Shown: positions 27,624 through 49,320 of the stretch, one piece after another
Layout of the letters: the number at the start of each line of letters is the position of its first letter
Position numbering within the stretch: position 1 is the first letter of the stretch
Assembly (NCBI GenBank): GCA_009695195.1
Contig: SIBJ01000007.1
Span: 1-64,000 of the forward strand
Direction of reading: 5' to 3'
Source: Pedosphaera sp.
Lineage (GTDB): Bacteria; Verrucomicrobiota; Verrucomicrobiia; Limisphaerales; JADLHS01
DNA length: 64,000 nt
Notes under the pieces: model-generated
What the model saw: only the letters and a program-made list of their open reading frames with translations
What the model was told of the DNA's origin: nothing
Databases searched by the model: none
Translations under genes and position numbers: made by a program

Positions 27624-27636
27624 GGCCCGCCTTCCC

Positions 27637-32319: not shown

Positions 32320-32331
32320 GTTGATTCCAAC

Positions 32332-35320: not shown

Positions 35321-37696
35321 GTGCGGAAAGACCTTGAAACAACCACACCATCGCGCCTGTTCGCCGGGCAGTCGTGGCCCGAGGTGGAGTTCATCCCGCC
35401 CTTGATCGCCGCCGCACCGGCGACAGCGCAGACATCACCGCCGTCAGAAGCTCCGGCGAATCTGCGATTTCAGCACGGCTGGCCGGTGCCTTCGACGATC
35501 TGTCCGCATCCCGACGAAGCGCGCGCGTGCATCCTGTTGCCGGAATTCGGCGCGACGTTGCTGGAGAAGGCGCGGGTCATCTCCAGCCGCTTTCCGTTCG
35601 CCGAGGCGGAGTACCGGAACTCGCGCGGAAAAGCGCCCGTCACCGAGGAGGCAGAGATTCCGCACTTTGAAAAAGTTTTCCGCCTCGCCGCGGCCATCGC
35701 GAGCGTTCCCAACGTCAGTGAGCTTCGCGACTACGACGAACTGCTCATCCTCACGGCCTGGCATTGCGTGCGACCCGGAGTCGAAGGGTTTCTCGGCTCC
35801 TATCCCAAATCACTGCTCTGTCCGTTGTCGCACGCGGCGCCGCCCATCGCGCTCGACTCGCTCTCCAGCGCGAAGCGATTCATCTTCGACCGTCGCGCGC
35901 CGATTTATCTGCGTTACCTGCTCTGCGAAAAATTTGGTCTGCGCTCGTGCGCCGATCTGGAAAATGCCGATTTGCGTCATCTGCTCCGGAGCACGGGTTT
36001 CCGGCTCATCCGTTCCAGCGCGGTGCCGGAAGTGGCGTTCGCCGGCATCACGCGGGGCGAAGACCCGGCGGTGCGCCCGTGGAAGCTGACGCTCCGGCAG
36101 GAACTCAGCGATGATCGCGCCGCGGAATTGCTGATCAACGCCGCGCTCTGGCAGATCAAACACGGGCTGCGGCTCGTGACCTTTGAGCGCGGCCAGCCGC
36201 GCTGGAATATCGGCGCCTTCGAGCGGACGGATTGGGAGGACGCGTTTCTGTCGCTCGGGGTGCGGGTGGCGCCGGCGCTGACGCGCGAGAGCGGGTTGTT
36301 GGATTGGCGCGCGGTGCTGGGGCGCTGCCTCGACGAGATCGGCACCGGCAATCTGCCGCCCGAATTGCTGGGAAAAATTTCCGCCCTGCCCCAGCGCGTT
36401 TGTCACGACAGTCAACAGGCCATCTGGGACGTGCTCGACCGCGTCGCCGGCACCGTGTTGCAACAAGTGCGCGGGTCCGAGCCGCAGCTTTTTACCGACG
36501 ACGGCGGATTGAACTACGAAACCGCGCGCTCCTTCCGCCGCTGGGCGCGGCTCTTCGACGAAGTGTCGCCGCAAATCTTGTCCCGCTTCGGCGTGTCGGC
36601 TTTCACCGCGTTGCATCGCGTGGCGCCGCAATATTTCGGCTGGGGCCGCGCCCATCTCAAACCGTGGGAACTGGAACAGGAGTACGGAAAATGGAAAGGC
36701 TCGCGGGGTCGCGCCCTGTTGCGGAGCGCGTACGCGTTCGCGCTTTACGAAACCGGCCTCGGCAGCATCGAGCACCAGGAGGAACAAGTCGTCTGGCAGT
36801 GCAGCTTGAATCAATTCTCCGCGTGGTCCGCGCGCAAGGCCGAACAGGAGATCAGCGCTTATGAATTTTTATACGGCCTGGCGAGCCGACACGGTTTGAC
36901 GCCGTTGTTGAGCCGGGAGATCACGCACACCGCGGCGGTGTCGTTGCTCGCGGGCATGAATCTGCACGCGAACCTGCCGCGGATCGAAGGCTGTTGGGAC
37001 GTGTGCCTGCGCGCCGCGCTCGAACGTCACGGCGGCAAACTGGAAGTGCGCCTGGTGCTGCCGGACTTGGTGCCGTTGCCGTTGCGTCTGCGCAAAGCCG
37101 TCCTCACGCCGCTCAGTTACAGTTATCTCCACAAAGAAATCCGGCTCGTCCGGGATTTTGATCTGCGCATGGCGCGGGAAAGCCACCGCAAGCTCGAAGA
37201 GATCCCCGGCTGGTGGGAAGACGAACGCATCGCGGGCACGCCGCTCGTCGCGAGGCTCAACGATAAGACCGACCCGGCCCGCGCGGTGCTCGCGCGGTTG
37301 GACCCCGAACCCTGGCTCGAACCGCCCACGCAGCGGATCCGGTTTCGCGCGCTTCACCTCCTCATCTCCAAACGCGCGACGGATCGAACGTCGCCCGGCG
37401 ACTCGGGGCTTTCCGCCGACGAAATTCGCGTCCTGCTCCGGCTCGCTTTGGACCCGACGCTGGAACACACGAACATCGCGCACGTTTCTTTCCCGGCCAT
37501 CCGCCGCGGCTTCGAGCGCATCCTCGCGCGCGACGACACCCGCGAAATGCTGGATTCCTTGCTGCTGCACATCGGCACCGCCTACGAAACCGAAATCTGG
37601 GGCCAGGTGCGCAAGTTCATCGTGCTCGACGTCATCAACGACCTGCTCGCGCTCACCGTCCGGGGTTCGCTGCTGCATCTGATGAGTTCGGAATGA
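35321..37696 (+). CDS. Large unrecognised protein (791 residues)
   Basis: An uninterrupted frame of 791 codons starting at GTG, with window-typical GC-rich codon use. No transmembrane segment or signal peptide is seen, so it is probably cytoplasmic. It is mixed alpha/beta with several Trp-rich stretches (WELEQEYGKWKGSRG, IPGWWEDERIAG). Residues about 640-660 are rich in Arg/Lys and the final 100 residues are helical. I recognise no domain. It ends 49 bp from the convergent end of the pafA-like gene. Whether it works with that operon is unknown. No ribosome-binding site is obvious before the GTG. Confidence 0.7.
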   Translation: MRKDLETTTPSRLFAGQSWPEVEFIPPLIAAAPATAQTSPPSEAPANLRFQHGWPVPSTICPHPDEARACILLPEFGATLLEKARVISSRFPFAEAEYRNSRGKAPVTEEAEIPHFEKVFRLAAAIASVPNVSELRDYDELLILTAWHCVRPGVEGFLGSYPKSLLCPLSHAAPPIALDSLSSAKRFIFDRRAPIYLRYLLCEKFGLRSCADLENADLRHLLRSTGFRLIRSSAVPEVAFAGITRGEDPAVRPWKLTLRQELSDDRAAELLINAALWQIKHGLRLVTFERGQPRWNIGAFERTDWEDAFLSLGVRVAPALTRESGLLDWRAVLGRCLDEIGTGNLPPELLGKISALPQRVCHDSQQAIWDVLDRVAGTVLQQVRGSEPQLFTDDGGLNYETARSFRRWARLFDEVSPQILSRFGVSAFTALHRVAPQYFGWGRAHLKPWELEQEYGKWKGSRGRALLRSAYAFALYETGLGSIEHQEEQVVWQCSLNQFSAWSARKAEQEISAYEFLYGLASRHGLTPLLSREITHTAAVSLLAGMNLHANLPRIEGCWDVCLRAALERHGGKLEVRLVLPDLVPLPLRLRKAVLTPLSYSYLHKEIRLVRDFDLRMARESHRKLEEIPGWWEDERIAGTPLVARLNDKTDPARAVLARLDPEPWLEPPTQRIRFRALHLLISKRATDRTSPGDSGLSADEIRVLLRLALDPTLEHTNIAHVSFPAIRRGFERILARDDTREMLDSLLLHIGTAYETEIWGQVRKFIVLDVINDLLALTVRGSLLHLMSSE

Positions 37697-37745: not shown

Positions 37746-40082
37746 CTACAATCCCCAAAACACATCGCCGTTCTCCAGCACGCTTCGATCACGGCTCCAC
37801 GATTCCCAGCGCGCGAGGATTTTTTGGAACAATTTGCACGTCGCCAGCGCGGGGACTTCGGGGGCGAGCGCGAGGATGGCATCGTTGCCGTGCGGGGCCG
37901 CGGTGCTCGAAGCGGCGAGGCGCGCTTCGAGCAGCAACGTGCGGATGAGGCCGAGGCGGTTGTGCGCGCGGGACTGCGTCAACTTCGTCTCGGAGAGCAA
38001 AATGATGGCGGCGGACGGATCGGTGGGAGAAAAAAGTTTGGCGAGGTTGGCGTTGGTGAAATCCGTGAGGTCGCCGAGGTAACGGTTTTCCCGTTGGTGC
38101 GCGCGGGCTTCTTCGAGCAGCGCGCGGGCCTCGTCGGTTTTTCCGAGCAGCCGTTTCGCGTTGGCCAGCGTCGCGCGGCAGCGATTCAGAACGCGCGACT
38201 CGTCGCCGCGTGCGTTCACCGCGGTTTCGAGAATCGTTTCCGCCTCGTTCAAGCGGCCCTGCGCGAGGAGATACGCGCCCCAATGTTCGCGGAAACCGAC
38301 GGGCAGGTCGGCGAGGTCGCGGTCGGTGCGGCCATTCAGAACCGACTGAATGTGCGCCTCCATTTCGGCGCGCGGCGCCAGGCCGGCGAAACGCAGCACC
38401 AACAGATAATCCGTCACCTGACCCGTGTTGAGGTTCTGCGTATCGCTGATGTGGTTGAGAATCTCGACGCCGTCGAGGTGGCCGCGGCGCGCCTGCACCC
38501 AGGCCTTCATGCGCGCGAGCCGGATGCGTTGGAACGCCGGCATCAGCGCCAGGCGTGATTCCACGTTCCGGATTTCCTGGCTGGCGTCCTCAAACAAACC
38601 CTGTTCGTAAAGGCTCTCGACCCGCGACAACCGCCGGTCGAACAAAAGTTCCGCGCCCGTGTCCTCCGGCGCCGCGGCGGGCGTGGGAGCGGTTTTCCAT
38701 TCCTCGGTCGTCGCGAACGGGCGGGAGAGATCGAGCCACCGGCTGCCGCTCGCGTCCCAGACGCCGTCCCAATCGCAGTAGTGTTTCGGCTCGCGCCCGG
38801 AATATTTCTTGATGACCTCGCCGCGGATGCGCGCGCGCCCGAGGTTCGGCGGATTCGCCATCGCGTGCGGAAAATTATCCACGCCCGGAAACTGGTGCTG
38901 CAAAACTCCGGCGCGGTCCAGCCCGGCGAAGATGCCGCGCTCGCCGAGCTGGCCGAAGCGGACATCAATCTCGAAAAGTTCCTGCCGCAATTTCTCGTAC
39001 TGCGCGCCGCCGCCGCGTTGCGCTTCCTCCCAGTTCAATCCCCGCCGCGCCGCGCGGTCTGTGAAGAGCGAATACTTGATCGCCCAATCCAACGTCGTCG
39101 CAACGGACTCGGGCGCGCCCTGCGCGAGCCGGTCCAGAATCGCGCGCCAATGCTGGCAGACCTGCGGCGCCCACGGCGGCATGAAGTCCGCGTGCAGATG
39201 CGCCTCGGCGAGTTGCAGATAATGGCGCTGGATTTCAATCGCGCTGATCATGCCGCCGCGAAGCAACGGCACGCGCGCGCGGCAAAACGGATCGCGCGTG
39301 AAGGACTGCATCGCGTCCACCGGCTCGACGAGCGTGACTTTTTTCCCGGGCTTGAGTCCGCCGTCCGTGAGCGCCACGACCAGCGCCGTCGTCGCCGAAC
39401 GCAGCCACATGCTCGTGTGCGAGGAGAGCGATTCGCCGCAGATGACGTGCAGGCGGCGGAAGCCTTCGCCCGCGAGCGGTTCGTCGCGCGTGTTGAAGAG
39501 CGGGCGGTCGTGTTCCGTGCCGACCGAGATGGATTGCGTCAGATGCGCGACGCGCGGCGAGAGCATGAATTCGATGCCCGAAGTCAGCGCATTGAACCCG
39601 CCCGCGCCGGTGAAGATGATGCGCGACGCGAGGTGCGGCAGCAGATGTTCCGGCAGCGCCGGGATGGGCGTGCGCGTGAGATAAGATTCGTGCGTGCCCC
39701 AGCTCGTGTGCGTGCCGCTGTAATCCACGTTGTGTTTGAAATAGAGCGCCTCGCGCAGACGCGCGTCCTCGCGCAGCAATTCGCCCGTGAGTCCGAGCAG
39801 GATCAGTTCGTTCGCCACGATGTAGCGGACGGCGTCCCACGGATTCGGACATTCCGGCGTCGTCATTTCCTGGTGTGCGTCGCCGTTGCTGAAGTCGCGG
39901 TAAAAGCGCGAGCCGTTGCCGAGAAAAATTCCACGTTGCGCGCGCGCGCGGAGGTGCGGGAGACGCTTCTCCGCCAGCCGCTCGATCTGCGTCATCACCG
40001 GGCGCGCTTCCGCCACCGAACCGTCGCGGTGAAACGCCACGAAGGCGTACTCCGTCTCCACGCCCATCAAGCGTTCCGTCAC
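37746..40082 (-). CDS. PafA-like Pup/UBact ligase with helical-repeat C-terminal extension
   Basis: A 778-residue protein. Residues 1-480 match the Pup ligase/Dop superfamily: GVETEYA (residues 7-13; nucleotide/metal-binding Glu), LGNGSRFYRDF, TTPECPNPWDAVRY, HNVDYSGTHTSWGTHESYL, TEHDRPLFNTRDEPL, RRLHVICGESL and the late RARIRGEVIKKY...DWDGVWD. Pup ligases join the modifier's C-terminal Glu side chain to a lysine of the target using ATP. About 290 extra residues form TPR-like helices (SLYEQGLFEDASQEIRNVE, QRIRLARMKAWVQARRG), which normal PafA (about 450-480 residues) lacks. They could recruit substrates. It is the last gene of the operon and starts at GTG two bases after the UBact stop. Confidence 0.85.
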   Translation of the reverse strand: MTERLMGVETEYAFVAFHRDGSVAEARPVMTQIERLAEKRLPHLRARAQRGIFLGNGSRFYRDFSNGDAHQEMTTPECPNPWDAVRYIVANELILLGLTGELLREDARLREALYFKHNVDYSGTHTSWGTHESYLTRTPIPALPEHLLPHLASRIIFTGAGGFNALTSGIEFMLSPRVAHLTQSISVGTEHDRPLFNTRDEPLAGEGFRRLHVICGESLSSHTSMWLRSATTALVVALTDGGLKPGKKVTLVEPVDAMQSFTRDPFCRARVPLLRGGMISAIEIQRHYLQLAEAHLHADFMPPWAPQVCQHWRAILDRLAQGAPESVATTLDWAIKYSLFTDRAARRGLNWEEAQRGGGAQYEKLRQELFEIDVRFGQLGERGIFAGLDRAGVLQHQFPGVDNFPHAMANPPNLGRARIRGEVIKKYSGREPKHYCDWDGVWDASGSRWLDLSRPFATTEEWKTAPTPAAAPEDTGAELLFDRRLSRVESLYEQGLFEDASQEIRNVESRLALMPAFQRIRLARMKAWVQARRGHLDGVEILNHISDTQNLNTGQVTDYLLVLRFAGLAPRAEMEAHIQSVLNGRTDRDLADLPVGFREHWGAYLLAQGRLNEAETILETAVNARGDESRVLNRCRATLANAKRLLGKTDEARALLEEARAHQRENRYLGDLTDFTNANLAKLFSPTDPSAAIILLSETKLTQSRAHNRLGLIRTLLLEARLAASSTAAPHGNDAILALAPEVPALATCKLFQKILARWESWSRDRSVLENGDVFWGL

Positions 40083-40084
40083 GG

Positions 40085-40285
40085 CTACTCGCCTCCCTGC
40101 TGGCGGGCGGATTCGTTGAACTTCGTGCTGTCGCCGGACATCACATTATCAATCGCCGCGTCCGCCGCCGCGTAAAACGCCTGCGCGCGCTGCCGAAGCT
40201 GGTTCAAGTTCCCGCCGCCGACCGGCAGGGACGGATCCGCTCCGCCGGGATTGCTTCCGTCATTGGTGCGTTCTCGTTCGTTCAT
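40085..40285 (-). CDS. UBact/Pup-like protein modifier
   Basis: A 66-residue, polar, probably disordered protein ending RQQGGE. A C-terminal Gly-Gly-Glu is the ready-to-conjugate end of Pup and of the UBact family of Gram-negative Pup analogues. A glutamate end means no deamidation step is needed. The middle (LNQLRQRAQAFYAAADAAID) looks like the short helix that Pup folds when it binds the ATPase coiled coil. Only one lysine (Lys55) is present. The ATG has a strong ribosome-binding site (AAAGGAGA, 6-8 bases upstream) and overlaps the stop of the Dop-like gene by 4 bp. The pafA-like gene follows two bases later. Confidence 0.88.
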   Translation of the reverse strand: MNERERTNDGSNPGGADPSLPVGGGNLNQLRQRAQAFYAAADAAIDNVMSGDSTKFNESARQQGGE

Positions 40286-41946
40286 ATCGGTTTCTCCTTT
40301 CCGTTGGAATAGATTGCAACGGCGGTGCTCGTCGCCGTCGCGCTGGTAGCCGGCCAAAGGTCCTGGGACGATTCGTTCAAGGTTTCGATCACCCCGGCCA
40401 GACCGGGTGCGCGTTGAAACAGATTTTCATTCTCGGCGCGACCCGAAGCGAGCGGATCGGGCAGCCAGACTTGTTCGCGCATCGGCCAGCCGTCGCGGTC
40501 GCGCACGCGGAAAGAAATCTCATCCCAGTCCACGCGCTCGATCTCCTCGGGCTGCGCGTGACGGAGCAACATCGCGCGCGTCCAGGCCCGCGTGTCCTCG
40601 GGCGGTTGCTGCGTGAAGTGCTCGATGCGCTCGTCGCTCACGACCGGCTCGATCACGCCCTGCCGTTCGCACGCCCAGTAAAGTCCGTTGCGCAGGCTGC
40701 CGTACATCAAGTCCAGCCGCTTCAACTCCGGCGATTCCCACGTCCAATCCGGATGCTGGTGCCGCGCGCGGTCGAGCAGCGACGCTTTCAGAATCCAATC
40801 CACCCGCGACGTCAGCGCCGGAAAATCTTTGCGCGAAAGTTTTTGCAGCGTGTCGCCCCAGAGTTCTAAAATTTCTTTCGCGCGCGGCACGAAGCCTTCA
40901 CAGCCGCCGTCGGCCACGAACGCGCTGGCCTCCGCGAAGAAACGCAGTTGCAACTCCACCGCCGTGAGTTGCTGACCGCCGATCAACTCCGCGCACGCGT
41001 CCAGCGCGGGATCGTGACTCCACTGCTGCACCGCCGCCAGCGGGTGGTCGAGGATGAGTTCAGGATTCACGCGGCCGGCCTCGATCATCGCCAGCACGAT
41101 CTGCATCACGCCGACTTTCAGCAACGACGCCACCGGGCAAAGCGTATGGTCGTAAAAGATCACGTGCAGCCGCGCCATCTCCAGCGCCGGAATCTTCCTG
41201 CGCACCACACGCCGGAAGCCGCCGCACAACGCTTCGTTGCGCGAGTTCACGATGGGCCGCCGCTGCGTCGTCTCGATGCTCGACAGCGTCTCAAAAAAAT
41301 CCGCCCGCTGCGAAATCTGGTACGCCACCGCGGGCGCGCGGTTTTCCGAACCGACCTTGCCCTGACCGGTGAACACGATGCTCGACGCCTGATAGCTCGC
41401 GAGAAATAGCAGAGTGTGCATCCGGCTGAAAAAAAGTTCATCCCACGCGCGGCGGGTGATGAGGAAATTCAGATGGCTGCCGTAGCTGTTGCCCTGGCCG
41501 TCCGAATTGTTCGCCAACACCTCGATGATCTTTCCGTCGGTTGATTGCACGTTGGCGGCAGTCTGCGCGCGGCGGGCGAGCCGCAGCATCGCCTGCGCGC
41601 ACGCGACGTGATCGAACGCGCTCAACGTCTCGGGCTGCGCAAGTTCGAGGTGATCGAGATCAATGTAAATGCAGCCGCCGTTCTCCTTGAGATATTTCCG
41701 GCCCCAATCCTGATCGTCGTACGTCACGCCGCCGTCGCGCCGCGCGCCCGTCGGGAAGCCGTGGATTTCCCGCAGCAACAACCTCGACGCCAGCGCGCCC
41801 GTGCCGCCGACCGCCGCCGCGCCAGTGATAAAATTTCCCAGCTCGACATCCGCGCCGCACAATTTCGCCAGCCGTTCGGCGCGCGGTTTTTGTTTTGCCG
41901 CCGCGCGCGCCGCCGGATCGGAGACGTTGGAGAAAATATTTTTCAC
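40282..41946 (-). CDS. Dop-like depupylase/deamidase homologue
   Basis: A 554-residue member of the Pup ligase/Dop superfamily, starting at a GTG that overlaps the ATPase stop (GTGA). It has a divergent metal/ATP motif GADVELGNFITG (residues 31-42; family GxxTEYG), a Dop-like NNSDGQGNSYGSHLNFLI and ISQRADFFETL...ETTQRRPIVNSRNEAL, and a C-terminal TRAMLLRHAQ...VDWDEISF. Dop enzymes cleave the isopeptide bond, or deamidate Pup ending in Gln. Since the modifier here already ends in Glu, removal is the likely task. Several catalytic-site positions differ from classical Dop, so activity is uncertain. A pseudo-enzyme is possible. Confidence 0.75.
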   Translation of the reverse strand: MKNIFSNVSDPAARAAAKQKPRAERLAKLCGADVELGNFITGAAAVGGTGALASRLLLREIHGFPTGARRDGGVTYDDQDWGRKYLKENGGCIYIDLDHLELAQPETLSAFDHVACAQAMLRLARRAQTAANVQSTDGKIIEVLANNSDGQGNSYGSHLNFLITRRAWDELFFSRMHTLLFLASYQASSIVFTGQGKVGSENRAPAVAYQISQRADFFETLSSIETTQRRPIVNSRNEALCGGFRRVVRRKIPALEMARLHVIFYDHTLCPVASLLKVGVMQIVLAMIEAGRVNPELILDHPLAAVQQWSHDPALDACAELIGGQQLTAVELQLRFFAEASAFVADGGCEGFVPRAKEILELWGDTLQKLSRKDFPALTSRVDWILKASLLDRARHQHPDWTWESPELKRLDLMYGSLRNGLYWACERQGVIEPVVSDERIEHFTQQPPEDTRAWTRAMLLRHAQPEEIERVDWDEISFRVRDRDGWPMREQVWLPDPLASGRAENENLFQRAPGLAGVIETLNESSQDLWPATSATATSTAVAIYSNGKEKPI

Positions 41947-43637
41947 GACGCGCGCGCTCCGCCGTTGTGGTGGCTTGAATTGTCGCGCGTCTTGCGTTGG
42001 ACCGGTTGCAAACTCACCACGTCCATGTCCTGCGGCAGGTCGGTGAGGTGATGCCGGCAGTTCGCGGGTGTCAACGACTTCACGGCCGCATCGAACGCCT
42101 CGGCCATCGCGCCGGCGACGTCCTCGAACCGCAGGCCGCGCTCGCCGGTCTCGATTTCGCGCACGCACGCGCGCTCTGACGCCGAGGAAACGATGTTCGC
42201 GATCAGCGCGCCGCTGACGAGGTCCGCCGCGCGCACCGCGCGTTTCTTGCCGTCGCGGAACTGGAGCATCGCCAGTTCGCTGTCGCCGTTCGGCGCGTAA
42301 ATGCGCGCGACCGCCGCCTCGAGGATTTCCTCGCGCGTCGCGGCGAAGTCGTCGCCGTGGCCGTTGCGCGCGTACGGGATTTCCGGGTGCAGGTGCTTGG
42401 CGAAAATGTCCCGTGCCGCGTTGCGCTTCGGGCGGGTGATCTCGAGGACCAGATCGCCGAACCGGCCCGGTCGCAACAACGCCGGATCCATCGCCGAGCG
42501 CCGGTTCGTCGCGCCGATGACGATGATGTTTCCGCGCGCCGCAAGCCCGTCGAGTTCGGTCATGAACGCCGTCAGCACGCGGTCGTCCACGTGCGCGTTG
42601 GCCGCGCCGCGCGACATCCCGACGGAATCAACTTCGTCGAAGAACATCACGACCGGCGATTTCGGGTCCGCCGCCGCGGCCTCGCGCGCAAGCCGGAAGG
42701 CCTCGCGATAATTCTGCTCGGTCTGGCCGTACCACATCGTGTGCAATTCCGACGGCTTGATGTTCATGAACCGCGCGCGCCCGCCGGAACTCAGCGTGCC
42801 GAGCCAGTTCGCGATCGCCTTCGCGATCATCGTCTTGCCCGTGCCCGAAGGACCGACGAGCAGGATGGAACCCTTCCGCGCCAGCCGGTAGGATTTCGCC
42901 GTCTCCGCGTGGAAGAGGTGCAGGTTGATCGCGCGCTTGATGCGCTCGATCTGCGCGCCGAGACCGCCGATCTCGTCGAAGCGGGTCGTCGGGGAATCCT
43001 CGAGGAAATATTGTTTGCCCTTCGAGCGCTCGATTTTCTCGAACGCGATCCACGCGGCGCGGTCGCACCGCACCAGATCGCCGGCGACGAACTCCACCCC
43101 TTTCAAAATCACCGCCGGGTCCATCACGACTTCCTCGTCGCGGAAGCGCAGCACCATGCGCCCGCCCTCCGTCCAGCGCTCGAACACCGCCGTCTCGCCG
43201 CCGCGCGGCGTGGGGTTCGGCGATTTCGCCACGATGACGTTCAATTCGCTGCTGAGAAAAACTTCGCAGCCGACGCCGAGCGCGGCGCAGTCCACGCCCG
43301 ACGCGAAGTCGACGACGCGCCGCGTATTTCCCAACTGCACGATGGCGCGCGGGCCGTCCGGCGTTTCGCACGCCTGGACGAACGTGGCCGGGTACCACGG
43401 CGTCGTCGTTAATTTGTCGAGCATTTCCTTGATTCGGCGTTGGTGAAGGCGCGCTTCATCGAGTCCTTTGTGCATGGCGTTCAGGCGTTCGAGAATGGCG
43501 CGGTCCAGTTGACAGCTCACCTCGGCGTTCTGGCGCAGCGCGCCGAGGTGTGCGACTTGTTCGTCGAGACTCAGGCCGTTGCGCTCGCCGCCGAGCAGTT
43601 GATCCAACACGAGTGATTCAATCGCAGGCTTCTTCAT
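41943..43637 (-). CDS. ARC/Mpa-type proteasomal AAA+ ATPase
   Basis: A 564-residue ATPase. An N-terminal coiled coil (about residues 30-78) is where Pup docks in Mpa. It is followed by an OB-like domain (about 80-140) and an AAA+ module: Walker A GPSGTGKT (262-269), pore-loop-like MWYGQTE, Walker B VVMFFDEVD (329-337), sensor 1 GATNRR and arginine fingers RPGRFG. It would form a hexamer that unfolds tagged proteins. The C terminus ends NGGARAS and lacks the QYL/HbYX-type tail that opens the 20S gate. The start is the ATG after GGAGAAAAAC. It overlaps the JAB gene by 20 bp and the Dop-like gene by 4 bp. Confidence 0.88.
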   Translation of the reverse strand: MKKPAIESLVLDQLLGGERNGLSLDEQVAHLGALRQNAEVSCQLDRAILERLNAMHKGLDEARLHQRRIKEMLDKLTTTPWYPATFVQACETPDGPRAIVQLGNTRRVVDFASGVDCAALGVGCEVFLSSELNVIVAKSPNPTPRGGETAVFERWTEGGRMVLRFRDEEVVMDPAVILKGVEFVAGDLVRCDRAAWIAFEKIERSKGKQYFLEDSPTTRFDEIGGLGAQIERIKRAINLHLFHAETAKSYRLARKGSILLVGPSGTGKTMIAKAIANWLGTLSSGGRARFMNIKPSELHTMWYGQTEQNYREAFRLAREAAAADPKSPVVMFFDEVDSVGMSRGAANAHVDDRVLTAFMTELDGLAARGNIIVIGATNRRSAMDPALLRPGRFGDLVLEITRPKRNAARDIFAKHLHPEIPYARNGHGDDFAATREEILEAAVARIYAPNGDSELAMLQFRDGKKRAVRAADLVSGALIANIVSSASERACVREIETGERGLRFEDVAGAMAEAFDAAVKSLTPANCRHHLTDLPQDMDVVSLQPVQRKTRDNSSHHNGGARAS

Positions 43638-44706
43638 GTTTTTCTCCGATGATCGCCTCGCTCGAAATGGCTTCCGCCACGGCCCGGGAGGCATTCAGGA
43701 CGTGGAATCCCCGTTGCACGATCAAACCGTGACGCCAGCCGAACATCGCGTAGCGCATCCCCGCTTCCGCGTGCGTCACCACCAGCGCGGCACCGTAGGC
43801 CTGGGGAAAAACCGTCCGGTGCAGCGCGCAATCTTCGCCGCTGAAAAAACTGCGCGCGAGCGGACACTCGCGCCGCGCTTCGGGGCCGCAATTGGGCGAA
43901 CACCAGAATTTCGCCGGGTGCGAATGAAACCAGCCGAGCATGATCTCGCGCCCGCCGCGCAGCCGGATCGCCGACTCCGCGGCCGTCCACGTCTCCGCCG
44001 TGAACGTGACCGCCGTCAACTCGGAGCGCGTGTGCTTCGCGGGAATCAAATCCGTCGCCTCCACGAACAAAACCTGATCGTCGGCGTCGCGACAGACGTG
44101 GCCGATGAGGACGCCGGCGGTTTCGTCCGCGCCGGCGGCGCGCGTGAGGGCCGCCGCGTCGTCGAGCACGCGTTGCGGCACGAACAACGGCACGTCCGCC
44201 GCGTGCGCCGGGCCGAACGGCGTCGCCTGCGCGAAGAGTTCGCGCGACGACGCCGTTTTCACGATGAGCGGCGACGCCACTTCCTCAATGGTGAACGCGC
44301 GCTTCGCTTTGGCCGGCTCGCTCCTTGGCGTCCGGAAGGCAACGACCGAATAATGGAACTCCTCGCGGGGTTGCAGGATTTTCTGCGCGACGAGGCCGCG
44401 GCTGGCCTGCTGGGCGGCGGCGCGAAAATACGTGAGCGGCAGGTTCACCGCCGTCGCGCCGTTCCCGTTTCCGCCCAGCACCACGCGCACGCTGCCGACG
44501 TGCGGTTCGCCGCGGGATTCTTCCCATGCCGGCTCGACGGTGACCTCGCCGGTGTTCGGCAGCGCGACGAGGTTGTGCGCGCGGAGCGCAGCGAAGCGCG
44601 CGCACTCGCACGCCGGCCCCCAATCCATCGCCGCCGGGAACTGCCCGAGACTCGTGTGGTCCGGGCGTTCCAGGTCGAGCGCGTATTGATATTCGTCGAG
44701 CGGCAT
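43618..44706 (-). CDS. JAB/JAMM metalloprotease (deubiquitinase-like)
   Basis: A 362-residue protein. The C-terminal half is a JAMM domain with the zinc ligands His261 and His263 in WFHSHP and Asp292 in SGED, and the catalytic Glu195 in DETAG. JAMM enzymes cleave ubiquitin-like tails or isopeptide bonds. Between HSHP and SxxD there is an unusual insertion of about 20 residues with Cys269, Cys273 and Cys281 plus Cys293 nearby, perhaps a second metal site. Residues 1-170 are an unrecognised domain. It sits between the ubiquitin-like gene and the ATPase gene, as an Rpn11-like role would require. Confidence 0.88.
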   Translation of the reverse strand: MPLDEYQYALDLERPDHTSLGQFPAAMDWGPACECARFAALRAHNLVALPNTGEVTVEPAWEESRGEPHVGSVRVVLGGNGNGATAVNLPLTYFRAAAQQASRGLVAQKILQPREEFHYSVVAFRTPRSEPAKAKRAFTIEEVASPLIVKTASSRELFAQATPFGPAHAADVPLFVPQRVLDDAAALTRAAGADETAGVLIGHVCRDADDQVLFVEATDLIPAKHTRSELTAVTFTAETWTAAESAIRLRGGREIMLGWFHSHPAKFWCSPNCGPEARRECPLARSFFSGEDCALHRTVFPQAYGAALVVTHAEAGMRYAMFGWRHGLIVQRGFHVLNASRAVAEAISSEAIIGEKHEEACD

Positions 44707-44733
44707 GGGTGGTTTTTGTTTGCGCGGATTGGT

Positions 44734-45018
44734 TTATTTGGCGCCGGCGTTGATCTCGGGCTGGAGCACGAGCCGGTCGTGGGGCATCAGCGTGTCGCCG
44801 ACGAGTTCGCTGGCGTGCAGATGACGACCGTCGCGGTCGAGCAACGCCTGATACGAGAGCGTGCGCCCGCCGTTGTCGTTGGCCGGCATGTTCATGCGCG
44901 GGAGCAAACCCTCGATGAGTTCGCCGATGGTCGCGTCGTTGGGTGCGTCTTTCACGTCCACCAGTTTCTGGCCGGTGACGTCCGAGACCCGGATGGGTAT
45001 TGTCAGTGCTTGGATCAT
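44734..45018 (-). CDS. Ubiquitin-like beta-grasp protein
   Basis: A 94-residue protein with the strand-helix-strand pattern of ubiquitin: IPIRVSDVTGQKLVDV (hairpin), TIGELIEGLLPRM (helix), TLSYQALLDRDGRHLHASELV and the final DRLVLQPEI strand. It ends INAGAK and has no Gly-Gly. If it is conjugated through the C terminus, trimming of the last two residues would leave Gly92. The start is the ATG after AAAGGAC; an earlier in-frame codon exists. It follows a 66-residue ORF with a 4-bp overlap and precedes the JAB gene by 27 bp. Confidence 0.8.
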   Translation of the reverse strand: MIQALTIPIRVSDVTGQKLVDVKDAPNDATIGELIEGLLPRMNMPANDNGGRTLSYQALLDRDGRHLHASELVGDTLMPHDRLVLQPEINAGAK

Positions 45019-45215
45019 GGTTTTGTCCTTTCGTGTTTTGGTTTGGTGAGGTCCGCGGTCCACCCGCGGACGGTGAGATAATCCTTGGCGAGCCTTTCCG
45101 ATTGCAGCGCGGCGAACGATTCGCCGGCGGCGCGGCCCGCGGCGGAAAGTGAAATGAAACCGGCGTCCAATTCCGCCGCCGTCGGAATTTCCGCCCAGAA
45201 AATTTCAAACAACAA
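45015..45215 (-). CDS. Small unknown protein of the ubiquitin-like operon
   Basis: A 66-residue frame starting with TTG three bases after the previous stop and ending in a 4-bp overlap with the ubiquitin-like gene. The sequence LFEIFWAEIPTAAELDAGFI and RAAGESFAALQSERLAK looks like two amphipathic helices with a basic tail. No family is recognised. The spacing is what one expects of a real operon member. It could instead be the frame-shifted end of the upstream gene. Confidence 0.5.
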   Translation of the reverse strand: MLFEIFWAEIPTAAELDAGFISLSAAGRAAGESFAALQSERLAKDYLTVRGWTADLTKPKHERTKP

Positions 45216-45218
45216 TTT

Positions 45219-45998
45219 TCACGAGTCCGAGTCCGCGCTCGCGCGAACGAACGGGGTCAGGTTGGTTATCTCCAGTGCCAACGCCGCCGCCGCCGTCCGG
45301 CTGAGCGAAGAAAACGAACTCAAATCCGCCAACTCAGCGACCACACGGACGCCGCCGCCAACCGAAGTCACTGTGGCTTGCAACGCGAGCGTGACCTCCA
45401 ACGCGACGGTCAACCGCCCGGAGGAGCGCCGCACGCAGCGCCAGCCGCTTTCTTCGCAAAGGTTTTCCAGTTCGGTGGCACGCTCGCCGGCGGGCGCCGG
45501 CGCCGGGCGCAAATCGTTTTGAGAGGTGTGGGCCGTTTCGGTTGTAGGGCACGACGTGAGGAGTGCTTCGCCCGAACGACTCGTTACCTCGTCGCCTACA
45601 ATCCTTGAAAACGCACCGCTACCGGTTCGCCCGACGGTCTGAAAAGTTTTCACCAGCGCGCACACGCGCGACTCCACGTCCAGTTCCTCCGTGAGCAGCA
45701 AGTCCGCGCGCAACTCCAGCGTCCGCCCGGTGGTCAACGCGAGTTTGATTTCCGCCGGCAACCCGGCGTTCTTGCGCACGGCGGCCCAAAGATTTCCGAA
45801 CATGGACGGACTCGTCGCCAACTCGTGTCCGGCGGCGAACCACAGCCATTCGCCGTCGAGTTGCACAATCAGCGGGTGACGCGCGCCGCTTGACATCGGC
45901 AGCGACCAGCGAACGGCGGAGCGACGCTCGAGTTTTGCCGATTCGCTCCGCAGCGCGCGCTCGACACTTTCAATCGAAGTTTCGGCGAGGTAGTTCAT
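45219..45998 (-). CDS. Unknown protein between E2 and UBL genes, with repeat insertion
   Basis: A 259-residue protein. The N-terminal part (residues 1-125) has alternating strands and helices (HPLIVQLDGEWLWFAAG, LTTGRTLELRADLLLTEELD) that recall small chaperone-like or YbjN-like folds, but I cannot assign it. Residues about 121-155 are encoded by a dispersed palindromic repeat (45537-45637) that reads through in frame. The rest is a second strand-rich segment (GRLTVALEVTLALQAT). It overlaps the E2 gene by 4 bp and is surely in the operon. It might be a modifier- or substrate-binding partner. Confidence 0.7.
   Translation of the reverse strand: MNYLAETSIESVERALRSESAKLERRSAVRWSLPMSSGARHPLIVQLDGEWLWFAAGHELATSPSMFGNLWAAVRKNAGLPAEIKLALTTGRTLELRADLLLTEELDVESRVCALVKTFQTVGRTGSGAFSRIVGDEVTSRSGEALLTSCPTTETAHTSQNDLRPAPAPAGERATELENLCEESGWRCVRRSSGRLTVALEVTLALQATVTSVGGGVRVVAELADLSSFSSLSRTAAAALALEITNLTPFVRASADSDS
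45537..45637. repeat. 101-bp dispersed repeat, copy B, inside a coding region
   Basis: Matches 16058-16157 over its whole length, apart from scattered substitutions. The translated peptide (IVGDEVTSRSGEALLTSC) equals what the other copy would give in the same frame. It replaces normal coding sequence in the unknown gene of the ubiquitin-like operon, so this family can enter genes without ending them. Confidence 0.88.
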
Positions 45999-46552
45999 TT
46001 GTTTTCCTCCACGGCGACGGGTTGAACTTCGAGCTTCAATTTGCGCCGGCGCAGCGGACGGCGATCAATCGGAAACCACGTCGGGTCCTGATGCCTTGCC
46101 CATTGCGCGGCGGCGTGATTGAGACCTTCGTCGCCGGTGTACTTCACCCGCCACGTGAACAGCTCGTAACAATTGTAGAGAATGTCCACGAGCCGCGTGC
46201 CCGGCGCGATGTGCGTGCAAATGAACGGAGCTTTGATGTTCGGATGCCACGGGCGCGGCGCCGGCCCGAAATAGGTGACGATGAGCGACTCATCCACGCG
46301 CCGCAGATAATCTTCCGGAAACCAGATGCCGACGACGAAGCGGTTGAACTCCGCGACTTCGCCCGCGTCGTTCTGCACCAGGCCACGACAAATAAATTCG
46401 GCGATGTAGCGGTCGGACAGATGACCGTTCTGCGGCATCAATTTCAGGATGTCGCTCTCCGCCGCCAAGGCCATGCCTTCCTGATATTGCCGCCCGAGGA
46501 ATTCCCCGAAGATGCGGTCGGTCGGCGGCGATAAATTGATTTCGGCGTTCAT
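45995..46552 (-). CDS. E2-like ubiquitin-conjugating protein
   Basis: A 185-residue protein with a UBC-type core. Strands around EFNRFVVGIWFPEDYL and ESLIVTYFGPAP lead to WHPNIKAPFICTHI, where His103-Pro104-Asn105 and Cys112 reproduce the E2 HPN...C active-site pattern with one residue less between Asn and Cys than in eukaryotic E2s. A helical tail follows (LVDILYNCYELF), then a basic C terminus. It would accept the ubiquitin-like protein from the E1 as a thioester. Its start overlaps the E1 stop by 4 bp and its stop overlaps the next gene by 4 bp. Confidence 0.85.
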   Translation of the reverse strand: MNAEINLSPPTDRIFGEFLGRQYQEGMALAAESDILKLMPQNGHLSDRYIAEFICRGLVQNDAGEVAEFNRFVVGIWFPEDYLRRVDESLIVTYFGPAPRPWHPNIKAPFICTHIAPGTRLVDILYNCYELFTWRVKYTGDEGLNHAAAQWARHQDPTWFPIDRRPLRRRKLKLEVQPVAVEENK

Positions 46553-47667
46553 GTGTTCACCAATTCAAAGGCGATGCGGCTGTTTTCGCGGTTTGTAAAA
46601 ATCACATCGCCGGCGACGAGGCCGAGTTCGGACAGCGGTTTCGCGAGTTCCGGCGGCGTCAGCGTCCGCTCGCACAACGACGGAAGCGACACGAAGCCGA
46701 CGGGCTGCATCGTTCCATTGCAACGGCGACAAGCGCGATCCTTCGCCGCCGTGCGGCCCGCGAGCGCGAGCACCGCCTGCTCCGCGCCGCACACGCAGCG
46801 CCACTGGCGCTCGAAGGGTTTGCCGTCAAGGTGGAGCCGGACTTCCTCCGCGCCGTCGATTTCTTTTTGGACGGCGGCGAACAGTTCGCGCAGCGGGAAA
46901 TTGCCCGGCTCACATCGCACCGGCTGAAGCTGAAACGTGCGATGGTCGAATTTGCATTTCGGATTCCGGCGAAAGGACATCGAATGCAACTGGTGCGAAC
47001 CGGCGGCGAGGGTGATTTGTTTTCCGACGGCGGCGGATTTCAAATCGCCGGACAAAATTTTCTCGACCTCGATGGCTTGCAGCGATGCGGCCAGGCTCCC
47101 GAGCGAAGCCGGCGCGTGCGTTGGCGCGGCGCTGCCGTGCGGCTGACAGGGCTGTTTCACTTCCATCGTTTCGTAGTCGCGCTTGCTCCACGCGCACTCA
47201 TAGCAGGGCTGGTCGTCGCCCGGCAGATAAACATTCACACGCGCCAACCGGCCCTCCGCCGCCACGCCAGCGTCCACCCACGGAACATTCAATCGCCACG
47301 CGGGCTGGCTGACGTGTTGGCGACCCCACTTTGAATCCACGCACGCCGCGATCACGTCGGCGCGCAAACGCGCGAGGGGAACGTCTTCCACCGCGGCGTG
47401 GATCGCTTCGACTTGCAACGCAGGATTGATCTGACCCGCGCGCTCGGCCTGGACCAAAACTTTCGGGCGGCCCACGTCGCTTGGAAGTACCGCCTGGCCG
47501 CGCAGATTGGATTCGTCGTAGGCGTCGTGGTCCACGAGCGTCAACCGGTTCACGAATTCCAGGCGCGCGAGCAGTTCGACCAGCGGCGAGCCGATGTTGC
47601 CGAGGCCGACCACGACGACGTGTTTGCCGGCGGCGGCGTTCGGAGAAATGTTTTCGTTCGTTTCCAT
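46549..47667 (-). CDS. E1-like (ThiF/MoeB-type) adenylating enzyme
   Basis: A 372-residue protein. The ATP-binding Rossmann motif GLGNIG (residues 21-26) is followed by VDHDAYDESNLRGQ, with Arg56, Lys69 and Asp111 at the expected adenylation positions. Structural zinc is likely held by CYEC (155-158) and the NPKC / His242 region. Cys174 in VKQPCQPHG is a candidate catalytic cysteine. The tail holds an extra CVC...CRRC zinc ribbon (291-316) and a domain ending GDVIFTNRENS. It would activate the ubiquitin-like protein and pass it to the E2 gene product encoded next, with a 4-bp overlap. Confidence 0.9.
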   Translation of the reverse strand: METNENISPNAAAGKHVVVVGLGNIGSPLVELLARLEFVNRLTLVDHDAYDESNLRGQAVLPSDVGRPKVLVQAERAGQINPALQVEAIHAAVEDVPLARLRADVIAACVDSKWGRQHVSQPAWRLNVPWVDAGVAAEGRLARVNVYLPGDDQPCYECAWSKRDYETMEVKQPCQPHGSAAPTHAPASLGSLAASLQAIEVEKILSGDLKSAAVGKQITLAAGSHQLHSMSFRRNPKCKFDHRTFQLQPVRCEPGNFPLRELFAAVQKEIDGAEEVRLHLDGKPFERQWRCVCGAEQAVLALAGRTAAKDRACRRCNGTMQPVGFVSLPSLCERTLTPPELAKPLSELGLVAGDVIFTNRENSRIAFELVNT

Positions 47668-47668
47668 T

Positions 47669-48202
47669 TCAAAGTTCCTCCGGCGTCCAGCGCAGGCCGG
47701 TGTCGAACGCGGTGGGTTGATCGCACAACGGACAGGTCGGGCCGTAAGTCCAGCAGGGCTTGGCTTCCGATTGTTCGCACCAATGCCCGCAGCCAGGGCA
47801 CCGCACCGCGGGGGTTCCGGACTGAATTGGTTGTCTGCAACGGGCGCAGAACACCGGATGTTCGCCCGCCGTGAACGGCTCGACCTTCGCGAGTTCTTCC
47901 GTGGAGAAATAAAACCGCGTCCGGCCCGCGATCAAAATCTCGTCGCGGTCGCGCAACACGCGCAGGCCGCCGGCGAGCGGCTGACCGTTGACCCAGACGT
48001 GGGCTTCCGCCGCGCCGAGCAACGCCCAGAGCGGCGGCAATTCTCCGCGCGCATAACAGCCAAGCACCGCCGGCCCGTCCGCCGCCGCCAGCGCCGCGAG
48101 CGTGCGCACCGGCATTTCGGGATGCGCGCCGAGCACGGCGTGGCTGCCGCTCAACGGCTGCCGGACCCACTTCGTCCCGTCAATTTGCCAAAGGCTGGCC
48201 AT
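47669..48202 (-). CDS. FHA-RING protein, predicted E3
   Basis: A 177-residue protein. Residues about 10-105 look like a forkhead-associated domain (PLAGGLRVLRDRDEILIAGR and AHVWVNGQPL are typical strands), which binds phosphothreonine peptides. Residues about 119-160 are a RING-like double zinc site: CARC (119-122), CPGCGHWC (135-142) and CPLC (157-160), with Cys150 as a further ligand. Prokaryotic RING families of this kind occur with E1, E2 and JAB genes and are predicted E3 ligases. The start is ATG 48202; a TTG 11 codons upstream is open. The E1 gene starts one base after its stop. Confidence 0.82.
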   Translation of the reverse strand: MASLWQIDGTKWVRQPLSGSHAVLGAHPEMPVRTLAALAAADGPAVLGCYARGELPPLWALLGAAEAHVWVNGQPLAGGLRVLRDRDEILIAGRTRFYFSTEELAKVEPFTAGEHPVFCARCRQPIQSGTPAVRCPGCGHWCEQSEAKPCWTYGPTCPLCDQPTAFDTGLRWTPEEL

Positions 48203-48366
48203 AATTTTTTTGTCGCGCGCCGGGTTTGGTTTCAACGGCGCTGTGTGACGCGCGCGATAATCGCATGACTCCGGTGAAAAAAATCCTGAGCCGCAACGCT
48301 CACAGAAATCGGATGCGCCGCTCGTGCGGAAATTGTGGGGCCGGGTGGCATTTTATTTTTCATCGC

Positions 48367-48984
48367 TCACAACGGCTCTTGCCCCTTCACAGGCGCGCGC
48401 CGCTGCGCGAACCGCAATCCCAACTGCTGGTGCGTGTGCACAAAAAAGGGGTTCACGCCGGCGGCGGCGAGGGCGGCGCGTAAACGCCACACGAGTTCAT
48501 GCAGCGCGTGGCGCGAGAACGGGCGGCCCATCCGCGCCTGCATCACGCGGCTGACTTCCGCGTGTGGTTTCCACCGGATGAGTTTTCCGCCGTCGGTGGC
48601 CCCGTCGAGCAACAGCGTTTCCAGAAACGCCGCGAGGGTCGGCGACAGGCGAAATTCCTTTCCGCTGTTCACCCGCACCATCGCCGCGCCACGGGCGAGC
48701 GGACGCACCTCCAGTTTTTCCGCGCCCTCTTCGCCGGCAATTTCAAGAATGGCCTCGCTTTCCGAGGACGCAGGGCGCGGCTTTGCCGGGATGACCGGCA
48801 CGACCGTGAGCTTGCTACAGGCGTGCGGGATGGAGTGTTCCAGCGCGAGGAGGTCTTGCAGCAAAGCGTCCGCGCGTTCCTCGCTTTGAGCCAGGGCGTC
48901 GCGTAATTTTACCAATTCGACCTTCAACCGGCGCAAGGCCGCCCGCAGGTTGCCTTCGTTCTCGTTTCCGCTCTGGTCGGCCAT
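48367..48984 (-). CDS. Coiled-coil/winged-helix protein
   Basis: A 205-residue protein. The first 55 residues form a coiled coil (LRAALRRLKVELVKLRDALAQ and SEERADALLQDLLALEH). The C-terminal 85 residues resemble the winged helix of OmpR-type regulators: SPTLAAFLETLLLDG, HALHELVWRLRAALAAAG and a final VHTHQQLGLRFAQRR, like the TxxGxGYRF ending of that family. No receiver domain is present. It probably binds DNA and may control the operon, which continues 164 bp downstream on the same strand. Confidence 0.65.
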   Translation of the reverse strand: MADQSGNENEGNLRAALRRLKVELVKLRDALAQSEERADALLQDLLALEHSIPHACSKLTVVPVIPAKPRPASSESEAILEIAGEEGAEKLEVRPLARGAAMVRVNSGKEFRLSPTLAAFLETLLLDGATDGGKLIRWKPHAEVSRVMQARMGRPFSRHALHELVWRLRAALAAAGVNPFFVHTHQQLGLRFAQRRAPVKGQEPL

Positions 48985-48991
48985 AACAAAA

Positions 48992-49129
48992 TCATTTTTG
49001 GGTTTCGCACGTGAATGGGTTGATGCGATTCACGCCGGGCAAGTTAAGCGCGACGACGGCGCGCAAAACCGTTGCATCCACAGCCGGGCTGACTGGCGGG
49101 ACAGAAATCATTTTGAAGTTTCGTGGCAT
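48992..49129 (-). CDS. Small ORF in the operon leader (45 residues)
   Basis: Frame starting MPRNFKMISVPPVSPAV, ending RINPFTCETQK. It begins two bases after the stop of the 62-residue ORF and ends seven bases before the coiled-coil/winged-helix gene, which is the spacing of coupled genes. There is no homology or motif I recognise and no clear ribosome-binding site, so the call rests on layout alone. Confidence 0.35.
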   Translation of the reverse strand: MPRNFKMISVPPVSPAVDATVLRAVVALNLPGVNRINPFTCETQK

Positions 49130-49131
49130 GT

Positions 49132-49320
49132 TCAGTTTGATCCCGGTGGTTTCGCCCGTAGCTCGCGGAGCACGCCGCGCAGATGCCAGCGAAAATTCTT
49201 CCGGCTCCTCGCCAGCGTGCTCAAATGCAGCACCACGCGCCCGCCGCGATGGGCGGCGAGCCGGAGGCCGAGGCGTTGAAAGTGTGGTGAGAGGAAGGGG
49301 CGGCGGGATTTGCATGGCAT
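49132..49320 (-). CDS. Small basic protein at the head of the operon (62 residues)
   Basis: Frame starting MPCKSRRPFLSPHFQRLGL, rich in Arg (about one residue in five), ending RAKPPGSN. The ATG is preceded by AAAAAGGAACCGAC, a good ribosome-binding site. The stop is two bases before the next small start codon. It could be a nucleic-acid-binding peptide. The first likely gene of the long minus-strand train, it faces the divergent HTH-type gene across about 300 bases. Confidence 0.45.
   Translation of the reverse strand: MPCKSRRPFLSPHFQRLGLRLAAHRGGRVVLHLSTLARSRKNFRWHLRGVLRELRAKPPGSN

What the first reader, a model, noticed from the sequence alone, without database searches (positions are those of the whole stretch)
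37746..49320. One operon combining a pupylation-type and a ubiquitin-type conjugation cascade
On one strand, with 1-27 bp gaps or 4-20 bp overlaps from 48202 to 37746, lie genes for FHA-RING (E3-like), E1, E2, an unknown, a small protein, UBL, JAB protease, ARC-type ATPase, Dop-like, UBact/Pup-like and PafA-like proteins. Each half is known from other bacteria: UBact/Pup loci with PafA/Dop/ATPase, and E1-E2-RING-JAB-UBL operons predicted by comparative genomics. The tight overlap of the two, with the shared ATPase in the middle, implies two protein tags feeding one unfoldase. I do not know of an experimental description of such a unit.
Basis: partly seen in the sequence, partly recalled or inferred. 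Interest (0 to 1): 0.96.

Follow-up and report, generated by a model that had tools for sequence, protein, structure and literature searches.

The report
Ubiquitin-type and Pup-type tags, one operon
One compact gene cluster in this bacterium, found in the same order in genome records named for several other phyla, holds the parts of two unrelated protein-tagging systems (one like ubiquitin, one like Pup) around a single ring ATPase that is predicted to unfold tagged proteins, so the two tags likely work together.

Summary
Window 37746-48202 (minus strand) carries RING, E1, E2, an unassigned protein, UBL, JAB, ARC-type ATPase, Dop, Pup and PafA genes, with junctions of -20 to +27 bp. The halves are not neighbours by chance: 20 loci, the window included, have Ubl and Pup genes side by side, in records named Verrucomicrobia, Acidobacteria, Planctomycetes and Deltaproteobacteria; 11 of 12 named loci with room downstream of E2 do. 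Active-site residues are kept; 17 of 17 UBLs carry a C-terminal AG, 17 of 17 Pups end in GGE, GGQ or SGE. The E2 models as an E2 fold; the unassigned protein models as two tandem secretion-chaperone-like domains. The window genome has no 20S or HslV match and the ATPase lacks a terminal docking motif, so delivery to a proteasome is not supported. Crosstalk between the tags is inferred, not shown. One sentence in a 2020 eLife paper already notes a Ubl system coupled to Pup conjugation; I found no experimental description. Verdict: a real, conserved dual-tag operon; new variant of a known kind.

The parts
48367..48984 (-). 205-aa protein 164 bp upstream of the operon; C-terminal part looks like an OmpR-type winged helix (by eye, no call); possible regulator
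   Evidence: ORF; only a sub-threshold Pfam hit. Homologues in 3 of the 14 named loci: L023 (directly upstream), L032 and L033 (other strand, downstream)
47669..48202 (-).
   Evidence: Seven Cys invariant in 14 of 14 aligned, His ligand in 10 of 14 but not in the window; profile hits EL5 RING E 0.009 and PHD fingers, behind classical zinc fingers at E 5e-5 and 0.003; ATG 48202
46549..47667 (-). E1-like ThiF-fold adenylating enzyme with C-terminal zinc-ribbon Cys
   Evidence: PF00899 E 4e-33; ThiF-type catalytic Cys in 21 of 21 rows and six further Cys in 21 of 21; ThiF structure hits
45995..46552 (-). E2-like enzyme, HPN motif and catalytic Cys112
45015..45998 (-). Tandem secretion-chaperone/YbjN-like protein, split in the window by an in-frame TGA at 45219-45221 into ORFs 45219-45998 and 45015-45215
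44734..45018 (-). Ubiquitin-like modifier (UBL), ends ...NAG-AK
   Evidence: Family C-terminus AG in 17 of 17; weak in-register profile hits to SAMP1 and MoaD, E about 0.9
43618..44706 (-). JAB/JAMM isopeptidase with a Cys-containing insert
   Evidence: PF01398 E 2e-6, over cut-off; HxH, S and D in 20 of 20, E in 19 of 20
41943..43637 (-). ARC/Mpa-type AAA ATPase
   Evidence: TIGR03689 pup_AAA 315 bits (cut-off 505); Walker A Lys and Walker B Asp/Glu in 21 of 21; no GQYL-like C-terminus
40282..41946 (-). Dop-like depupylase/deamidase
   Evidence: PF03136 304 bits; TIGR03688 Dop 256 bits above the PafA model 218 bits, neither over cut-off; groups with canonical Dop
40085..40285 (-). Pup/UBact-like modifier, 66 aa, ends GGE
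   Evidence: Direct reading; family of 17 ends GGE, GGQ or SGE
37746..40082 (-). PafA-like Pup ligase with C-terminal TPR region
   Evidence: PF03136 281 bits, TPR about residues 600-668; PafA model 208 bits, Dop model 202 bits, neither over cut-off; groups with canonical PafA

Best explanation
The cluster encodes the parts of a ubiquitin-type cascade and of a Pup-type cascade around one ARC-type ring ATPase, and the two tags likely act in one pathway in which that ATPase would unfold or pull apart tagged proteins, probably without a 20S proteasome. Step by step (all inferred from family knowledge unless marked). JAB trims the UBL precursor to its conserved Ala-Gly end (the AG end is shown). 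E1 adenylates that Gly and passes it through its Cys to Cys112 of the E2 (residues shown, chemistry inferred). The RING protein places the loaded E2 at a substrate, and JAB can remove the UBL again. Dop converts Gln-ended Pups to Glu where needed, PafA ligates Pup to lysines, and Dop removes it. The tandem chaperone-fold protein, whose start overlaps the E2 stop, would hold the substrate and hand it over. The ATPase, encoded between the two cassettes, would recognise one or both tags and thread the protein. Nine of 17 Pups have no lysine, so UBL-on-Pup chains are unlikely as a general mechanism; the likelier design is two separate marks on a substrate read by one machine.
For: Same ten-gene order with tiny gaps or overlaps in records named for several phyla. 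Of 14 named loci found by E2 alone, 12 have room downstream and 11 of those carry ATPase and Dop there. All 14 genomes carry a Pup_ligase match (12 of 12, plus G397 and G394), against 11 of 387, 8 of 297 and 33 of 294 in phylum samples, each sample counting its own centre genome. Ubl-half and Pup-half distances agree: Mantel r 0.95 over 18 loci, 0.80 over 16, 0 of 20000 permutations as high. The 20 operon-type Dop rows lie on one side of a branch apart from canonical Dop (support 100). Active sites kept. UBL end AG 17 of 17, Pup end G[EQ] 17 of 17, lysine-free Pup 9 of 17. E2 fold. Chaperone-like fold.
Against: No result shows that the ATPase binds either tag, or that one protein carries both. 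In L027 and L028 PafA lies on the opposite strand, and L033 has no PafA at the site. L035 keeps RING, E1, E2 and the chaperone-like gene without the Pup half, with only Pup-ligase fragments elsewhere in its genome. L077 shows no RING or E1 upstream. Both halves exist alone: Pup without Ubl in the stretches of all 9 canonical loci of the own phylum (L084-L092), and a YukD-like UBL-E1-JAB-FHA-RING-E2 set in L094, whose genome G038 has no Pup_ligase match. The agreement of distances is also expected from mere linkage, and two deeply divergent loci (L154, L155) raise the Mantel value. PafA rows need two changes on the tree, which is a quick one with flagged long branches. RING and UBL profile hits are weak and not the top rows. 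In the window the chaperone-like gene carries a stop, so this copy may be damaged.
Confidence: 0.52

Rival explanations
1. Two independent tagging systems share an operon only because they are co-regulated or moved together; the ATPase serves the Pup half alone and the UBL conjugates regulate something else.
For: Both halves occur alone in other genomes. The ATPase is next to the Pup genes and is nearest the pup_AAA model. PafA can be inverted or displaced.
Against: The junction JAB-ATPase-Dop recurs in loci named for several phyla; the four E2 hits above 130 bits in the Planctomycetota sample are all in combined operons.
Confidence: 0.27
2. The operon is a conflict or antiphage module, like other bacterial Ubl operons (Bil, type II CBASS, FtsH-ternary systems), with tagging used to disable or switch on a target.
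For: Ubl systems occur in conflict systems (PMC7159879, passages); E1 matches PADLOC E1-E2 models generically (best E 9e-11); distribution is patchy.
Against: No effector gene seen in the ten-gene unit; no PADLOC hit for RING, E2, the unassigned protein, UBL, Dop, Pup or PafA. Pfam scans of flanking genes show housekeeping or unassigned proteins.
Confidence: 0.13
3. The window copy is decaying: the in-frame TGA ends the chaperone-like protein early and the operon is no longer fully functional in this genome.
For: In-frame TGA at 45219-45221 where the 8 of 9 relatives that reach it read on; the window ATPase lacks the PHRY-type tail of many relatives; the window RING has Glu where 10 of 14 have the His ligand.
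Against: The other genes are open with the looked-up active-site residues kept; the sequence is a draft assembly, so the TGA may be an error; a TTG codon that could restart lies just after it.
Confidence: 0.25
4. The UBL half is a sulfur-carrier or cofactor pathway, not protein conjugation.
For: E1 is closest to ThiF and MoeB by sequence; the UBL has weak hits to MoaD and SAMP1.
Against: A separate E2 with HPN and Cys, a RING-type protein and a JAMM protease in the same operon.
Confidence: 0.03

Closest known systems
[quoted passage not shown] passages read)
   Same: Ubl conjugation genes coupled with Pup conjugation genes; planctomycetes among the hosts.
   Different: One sentence without gene order in the passages that I read. 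Here: ten-gene order, records named Verrucomicrobia, Acidobacteria and Deltaproteobacteria, separate UBL and E2, AG end, chaperone-fold protein, proteasome survey.
Pup-proteasome and UBact loci outside Actinobacteria (Iyer et al. 2008, PMC2588565, abstract and passages; UBact papers recalled, not seen)
   Same: Pup ending in G[EQ], two PafA/Dop paralogues, ARC-type ATPase.
   Different: No 20S match in the window genome; Ubl cascade attached; Dop and PafA outside the canonical groups.
Bacterial and archaeal E1-E2-RING-JAB-UBL operons (Burroughs et al. 2011, recalled, not held; PMC4197634, passages; archaeal operon PMC5654768, passages; L094 here)
   Same: Same five protein roles in one operon; PMC4197634 mentions related operons in Actinobacteria, Planctomycetes and Acidobacteria.
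   Different: No Pup half named in those passages; L094 has a YukD-like UBL, a UQ_con-type E2 and a separate FHA gene.
Bil (BilABCD) and other bacterial Ubl systems (PMC11354881, passages)
   Same: E1, E2, JAB chemistry.
   Different: The Bil operon there has four genes and no RING or Pup gene; BilA has two ubiquitin-like domains, the window UBL is 94 residues.
Class I type III secretion chaperones and YbjN-family proteins
   Same: Predicted fold of each half of the unassigned protein.

Membership tests
Pup/UBact conjugation system | Small modifier ending in G[EQ] next to a PafA-family ligase | tested here: met
Pup/UBact conjugation system | Two paralogues, one Dop-like and one PafA-like | tested here: met
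   the Dop rows and PafA rows fall on the two sides of one branch (98) with their canonical namesakes; equivalog cut-offs not reached
Pup/UBact conjugation system | Pup covalently joined to substrates | not testable with these tools
   Needs biochemistry
Pup-proteasome system | 20S proteasome genes in the genome | tested here: not met
   no PF00227 match in G000 (90.8% complete). Among 14 relatives, 20S beta recognised only in G387 and G391, away from this operon
Pup-proteasome system | ATPase C-terminal GQYL/HbYX docking motif (motif recalled) | tested here: not met
   window ends NGGARAS; many relatives have PHRY followed by 3 or more residues
E1-E2-RING-JAB-UBL conjugation operons | E1 of ThiF fold with catalytic Cys | tested here: met
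E1-E2-RING-JAB-UBL conjugation operons | E2 fold with HPN and catalytic Cys | tested here: met
   no direct Pfam UQ_con hit
E1-E2-RING-JAB-UBL conjugation operons | RING-type zinc finger | tested here: inconclusive
   Ligand pattern and EL5 RING hit E 0.009, but classical zinc fingers rank higher, Pfam RING only E 0.46, and the window lacks the His ligand kept in 10 of 14
E1-E2-RING-JAB-UBL conjugation operons | JAMM protease motif | tested here: met
E1-E2-RING-JAB-UBL conjugation operons | Beta-grasp UBL with usable C-terminal Gly | tested here: inconclusive
   C-terminal AG 17 of 17; fold only by weak profile hits, behind a chance-like HslU row; not modelled
Bil / type II CBASS | Known defence models match the set | tested here: not met
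   only generic E1, JAB and AAA hits
Class I secretion chaperone / YbjN-like fold | Predicted fold match over a whole domain | tested here: met

The most novel reading that the evidence does not exclude
This is a two-key protein-fate switch: a ubiquitin-type mark and a Pup mark, evolved independently, are written on the same proteins by one operon, and a dedicated ring ATPase with a built-in tandem chaperone acts only on doubly marked proteins, remodelling them without a proteasome. It would be the first natural pathway in which ubiquitin-type and Pup-type chemistry are integrated, and an old one, since one gene order spans several phyla.
Probability: 0.2. Interest if true: 0.93.

Novelty: new variant of a known kind. 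Interest (0 to 1): 0.8.

Why it matters
Ubiquitin-type tagging and pupylation are regarded as convergent inventions and are usually studied apart. A conserved operon that holds both, with one ATPase between them, makes it directly testable whether two unrelated tags can be read by one machine, whether a bacterial ubiquitin-type cascade feeds an unfoldase, and what tagging does in bacteria without a 20S proteasome. It also supplies a compact E1-E2-RING-UBL-JAB set for reconstitution.

Tried and rejected
Single-sequence scan with the 67-residue Pup reading found no relative, so the E2 alignment was used instead. Pfam, NCBIfam and PADLOC for E2, UBL, Pup and the unassigned protein: nothing over a cut-off. 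The homologue search for the unassigned protein scored a capped list of 7996 candidates and returned 10; the E2 list shows 120 of 391, of which 29 went into the alignment. A UBL-JAB fusion suggested by L032 was rejected: the ORF runs through unread bases (X). UBL-on-Pup chains as the general mechanism: rejected because 9 of 17 Pups lack lysine; Pup-on-UBL cannot be general either, because the L022 UBL reading has no lysine. Delivery to HslV: 8 of 10 proteasome-like proteins scanned are HslV, but the window genome has no match. My E1 'Mg Asp' lookup hit the neighbouring column and is not used; one PafA lookup there found no fragment, and the PafA and Dop lookups were not mapped to published residue numbers. 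Rows dropped: L032 from UBL counts (unread bases); L154 and L155 from Pup counts (no Pup found by the model), L154 also from UBL counts. One search used only the 18 loci with Dop, E1 and JAB. Not classified: PF00227 matches L049 and L051-L054. The Planctomycetota E2 search had 14 further genomes with hits at 33-63 bits, which I read as other E2 families and did not follow. An E2 search of the Acidobacteriota sample was planned and not run.
Full report
What is there. On the minus strand of the window, 48202 to 37746, lie ten genes in the order RING protein, E1, E2, an unassigned protein, UBL, JAB, ARC-type ATPase, Dop-like, Pup-like, PafA-like. Their nine junctions run from a 20 bp overlap to a 27 bp gap, and 5 of 9 are 4 bp start-stop overlaps. 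In 8 of 9 database relatives the second is the C-terminal part of the first (the ninth is too short), so they are one gene, split in the window by an in-frame TGA at 45219-45221. Whether that is a mutation or an assembly error cannot be told here.

Tag ends and active sites. In 17 UBLs read, all carry Ala-Gly near the C-terminus; 6 stop exactly there and 11 have tails of 1 to 11 residues, as a JAB-trimmed precursor would (L032 left out because of unread bases). In 17 Pups read, the end is GGQ in 10, GGE in 5 and SGE in 2; 9 of 17 have no lysine. E1 catalytic Cys 21 of 21, E2 Cys 20 of 20, JAB HxH, S and D 20 of 20, ATPase Walker Lys, Asp and Glu 21 of 21.

Conservation. A scan of species genomes with the E2 alignment alone gave 14 named loci. 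Six have all ten genes on one strand (L023, L026, L029, L031, L032, L034); L027 and L028 have all ten with PafA inverted; L033 lacks PafA at the site; L022 and L024 run to Dop near the contig end; L025 and L030 end within the gene after E2; L035 has RING, E1, E2 and the chaperone-like gene only. So 11 of the 12 with room downstream carry the ATPase and Dop there. All 14 genomes have a Pup_ligase match (for 12 of 12; for the other two), in L035's genome only fragments. Record titles name Verrucomicrobia, Acidobacteria, Planctomycetes and Deltaproteobacteria, one only 'bacterium'; these are metagenome assemblies, so titles may err.

Reverse direction. Pup_ligase matches occur in 11 of 387 genomes of the own phylum, the window's included and one of them a short fragment; the E2 search of 387 gave 4, three of them weak; only the window genome is in both lists. 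Nine canonical Pup loci there show no Ubl gene within the stretches fetched around Dop (L084-L092). In the Acidobacteriota sample 8 of 297 genomes match, the centre included: L032's genome, L077, L078 and L079 show Ubl-half genes beside the Pup genes (in L079 only JAB, at the contig edge); L080 ends at the contig edge; three show none. In the Planctomycetota sample 33 of 294 match, the centre included: 6 have the Ubl half adjacent (G394, G709, G712, G746, and the divergent G715 and G962), 3 have Dop and PafA without it (G733, G747, G888), and 24 show a PafA-like match only in the stretches fetched, some on short contigs. In all, 20 loci including the window show Ubl-half and Pup-half genes side by side. 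The four strong E2 hits in that sample (132-196 bits; 18 genomes hit in all) are all combined operons.

One lineage. In a quick tree of 70 Dop and PafA rows the 20 operon-type Dop rows lie on one side of a branch (support 100), with three ungrouped planctomycete rows among them, beside canonical Dop; PafA rows need two changes; long branches are flagged. Distances of the Ubl half and the Pup half agree over 18 loci (r 0.95) and over 16 without the two divergent ones (r 0.80), with none of 20000 permutations as high. This fits long joint inheritance, but linked genes would give the same without any functional contact.

Proteasome. PF00227 has no match in the window genome (90.8% complete), nor in G388 and G395. 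Of ten proteins scanned from relatives, eight are HslV and two are nearest 20S beta, below its cut-off. The two 20S genes (G387, G391) lie beside Pup-ligase-family genes on contigs other than the one with the combined operon, so those genomes have a second, canonical-looking system. The ATPase C-termini lack a GQYL- or HbYX-like end (motif recalled). Hence a proteasome is not a part of this unit.

How it likely works. Two tagging routes converge on one ATPase. The convergence is inferred from the constant central position of the ATPase gene and from co-inheritance. The main rival, two systems that merely share an operon, is not excluded.

Prior work. Kaur et al. [quoted passage not shown] Iyer et al. 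2008 (abstract and passages) describe Pup loci outside actinobacteria; the passages that I read link no Ubl genes to them. PMC4197634 (passages) mentions Ubl operons in planctomycetes and acidobacteria. Burroughs et al. 2011 is not held, so I cannot say whether it covers this operon. The nine paper searches that were answered showed no other mention in their listings and the passages read.

Noticed in passing
window 26126-34299, + strand: MoxR ATPase, two BatA/VWA proteins and a BatD-like protein in a row: an ordinary-looking Bat (aerotolerance) operon a few kb from the finding.
   Followed up: partly
window 35321-37696, + strand: 791-aa protein convergent with the PafA gene; no Pfam family over its cut-off.
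   Followed up: no
L040 (G387) and L041 (G391): The genomes of L022 and L026 carry a second, canonical-looking Pup locus with a 20S beta-like gene next to Pup-ligase-family genes.
   Followed up: partly
L027 and L028: PafA is inverted relative to the rest of the operon in two related Acidobacterium records.
   Followed up: no
L035 and G400:C106: RING, E1, E2 and chaperone-like gene without the Pup half, and only Pup-ligase fragments elsewhere: perhaps a decaying copy.
   Followed up: partly
L154 and L155: Very divergent versions of the combined operon; L154 has an HPN...C stretch in the E2 position; no Pup found by the model.
   Followed up: partly
L130, L131, L133-L153, L157-L159: Planctomycetota loci with a PafA-like gene but no Dop, ATPase or Pup detected in the stretch; one paper used single-copy planctomycete homologues as an outgroup (PMC7947786, passages).
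   Followed up: no
L094 4105-10352: Stand-alone operon in the own phylum: trypsin-like, YukD-like UBL, E1, JAB, FHA, RING and UQ_con-type E2 genes, no Pup genes.
   Followed up: partly
window JAB gene 43618-44706: Three Cys in an insert between the HxH and S..D motifs, kept in 19 of 20 rows: possible extra metal site.
   Followed up: no
window 38079-38285: The PafA-like protein has a C-terminal TPR region; several relatives (L029, L031, L032) are much shorter.
   Followed up: no
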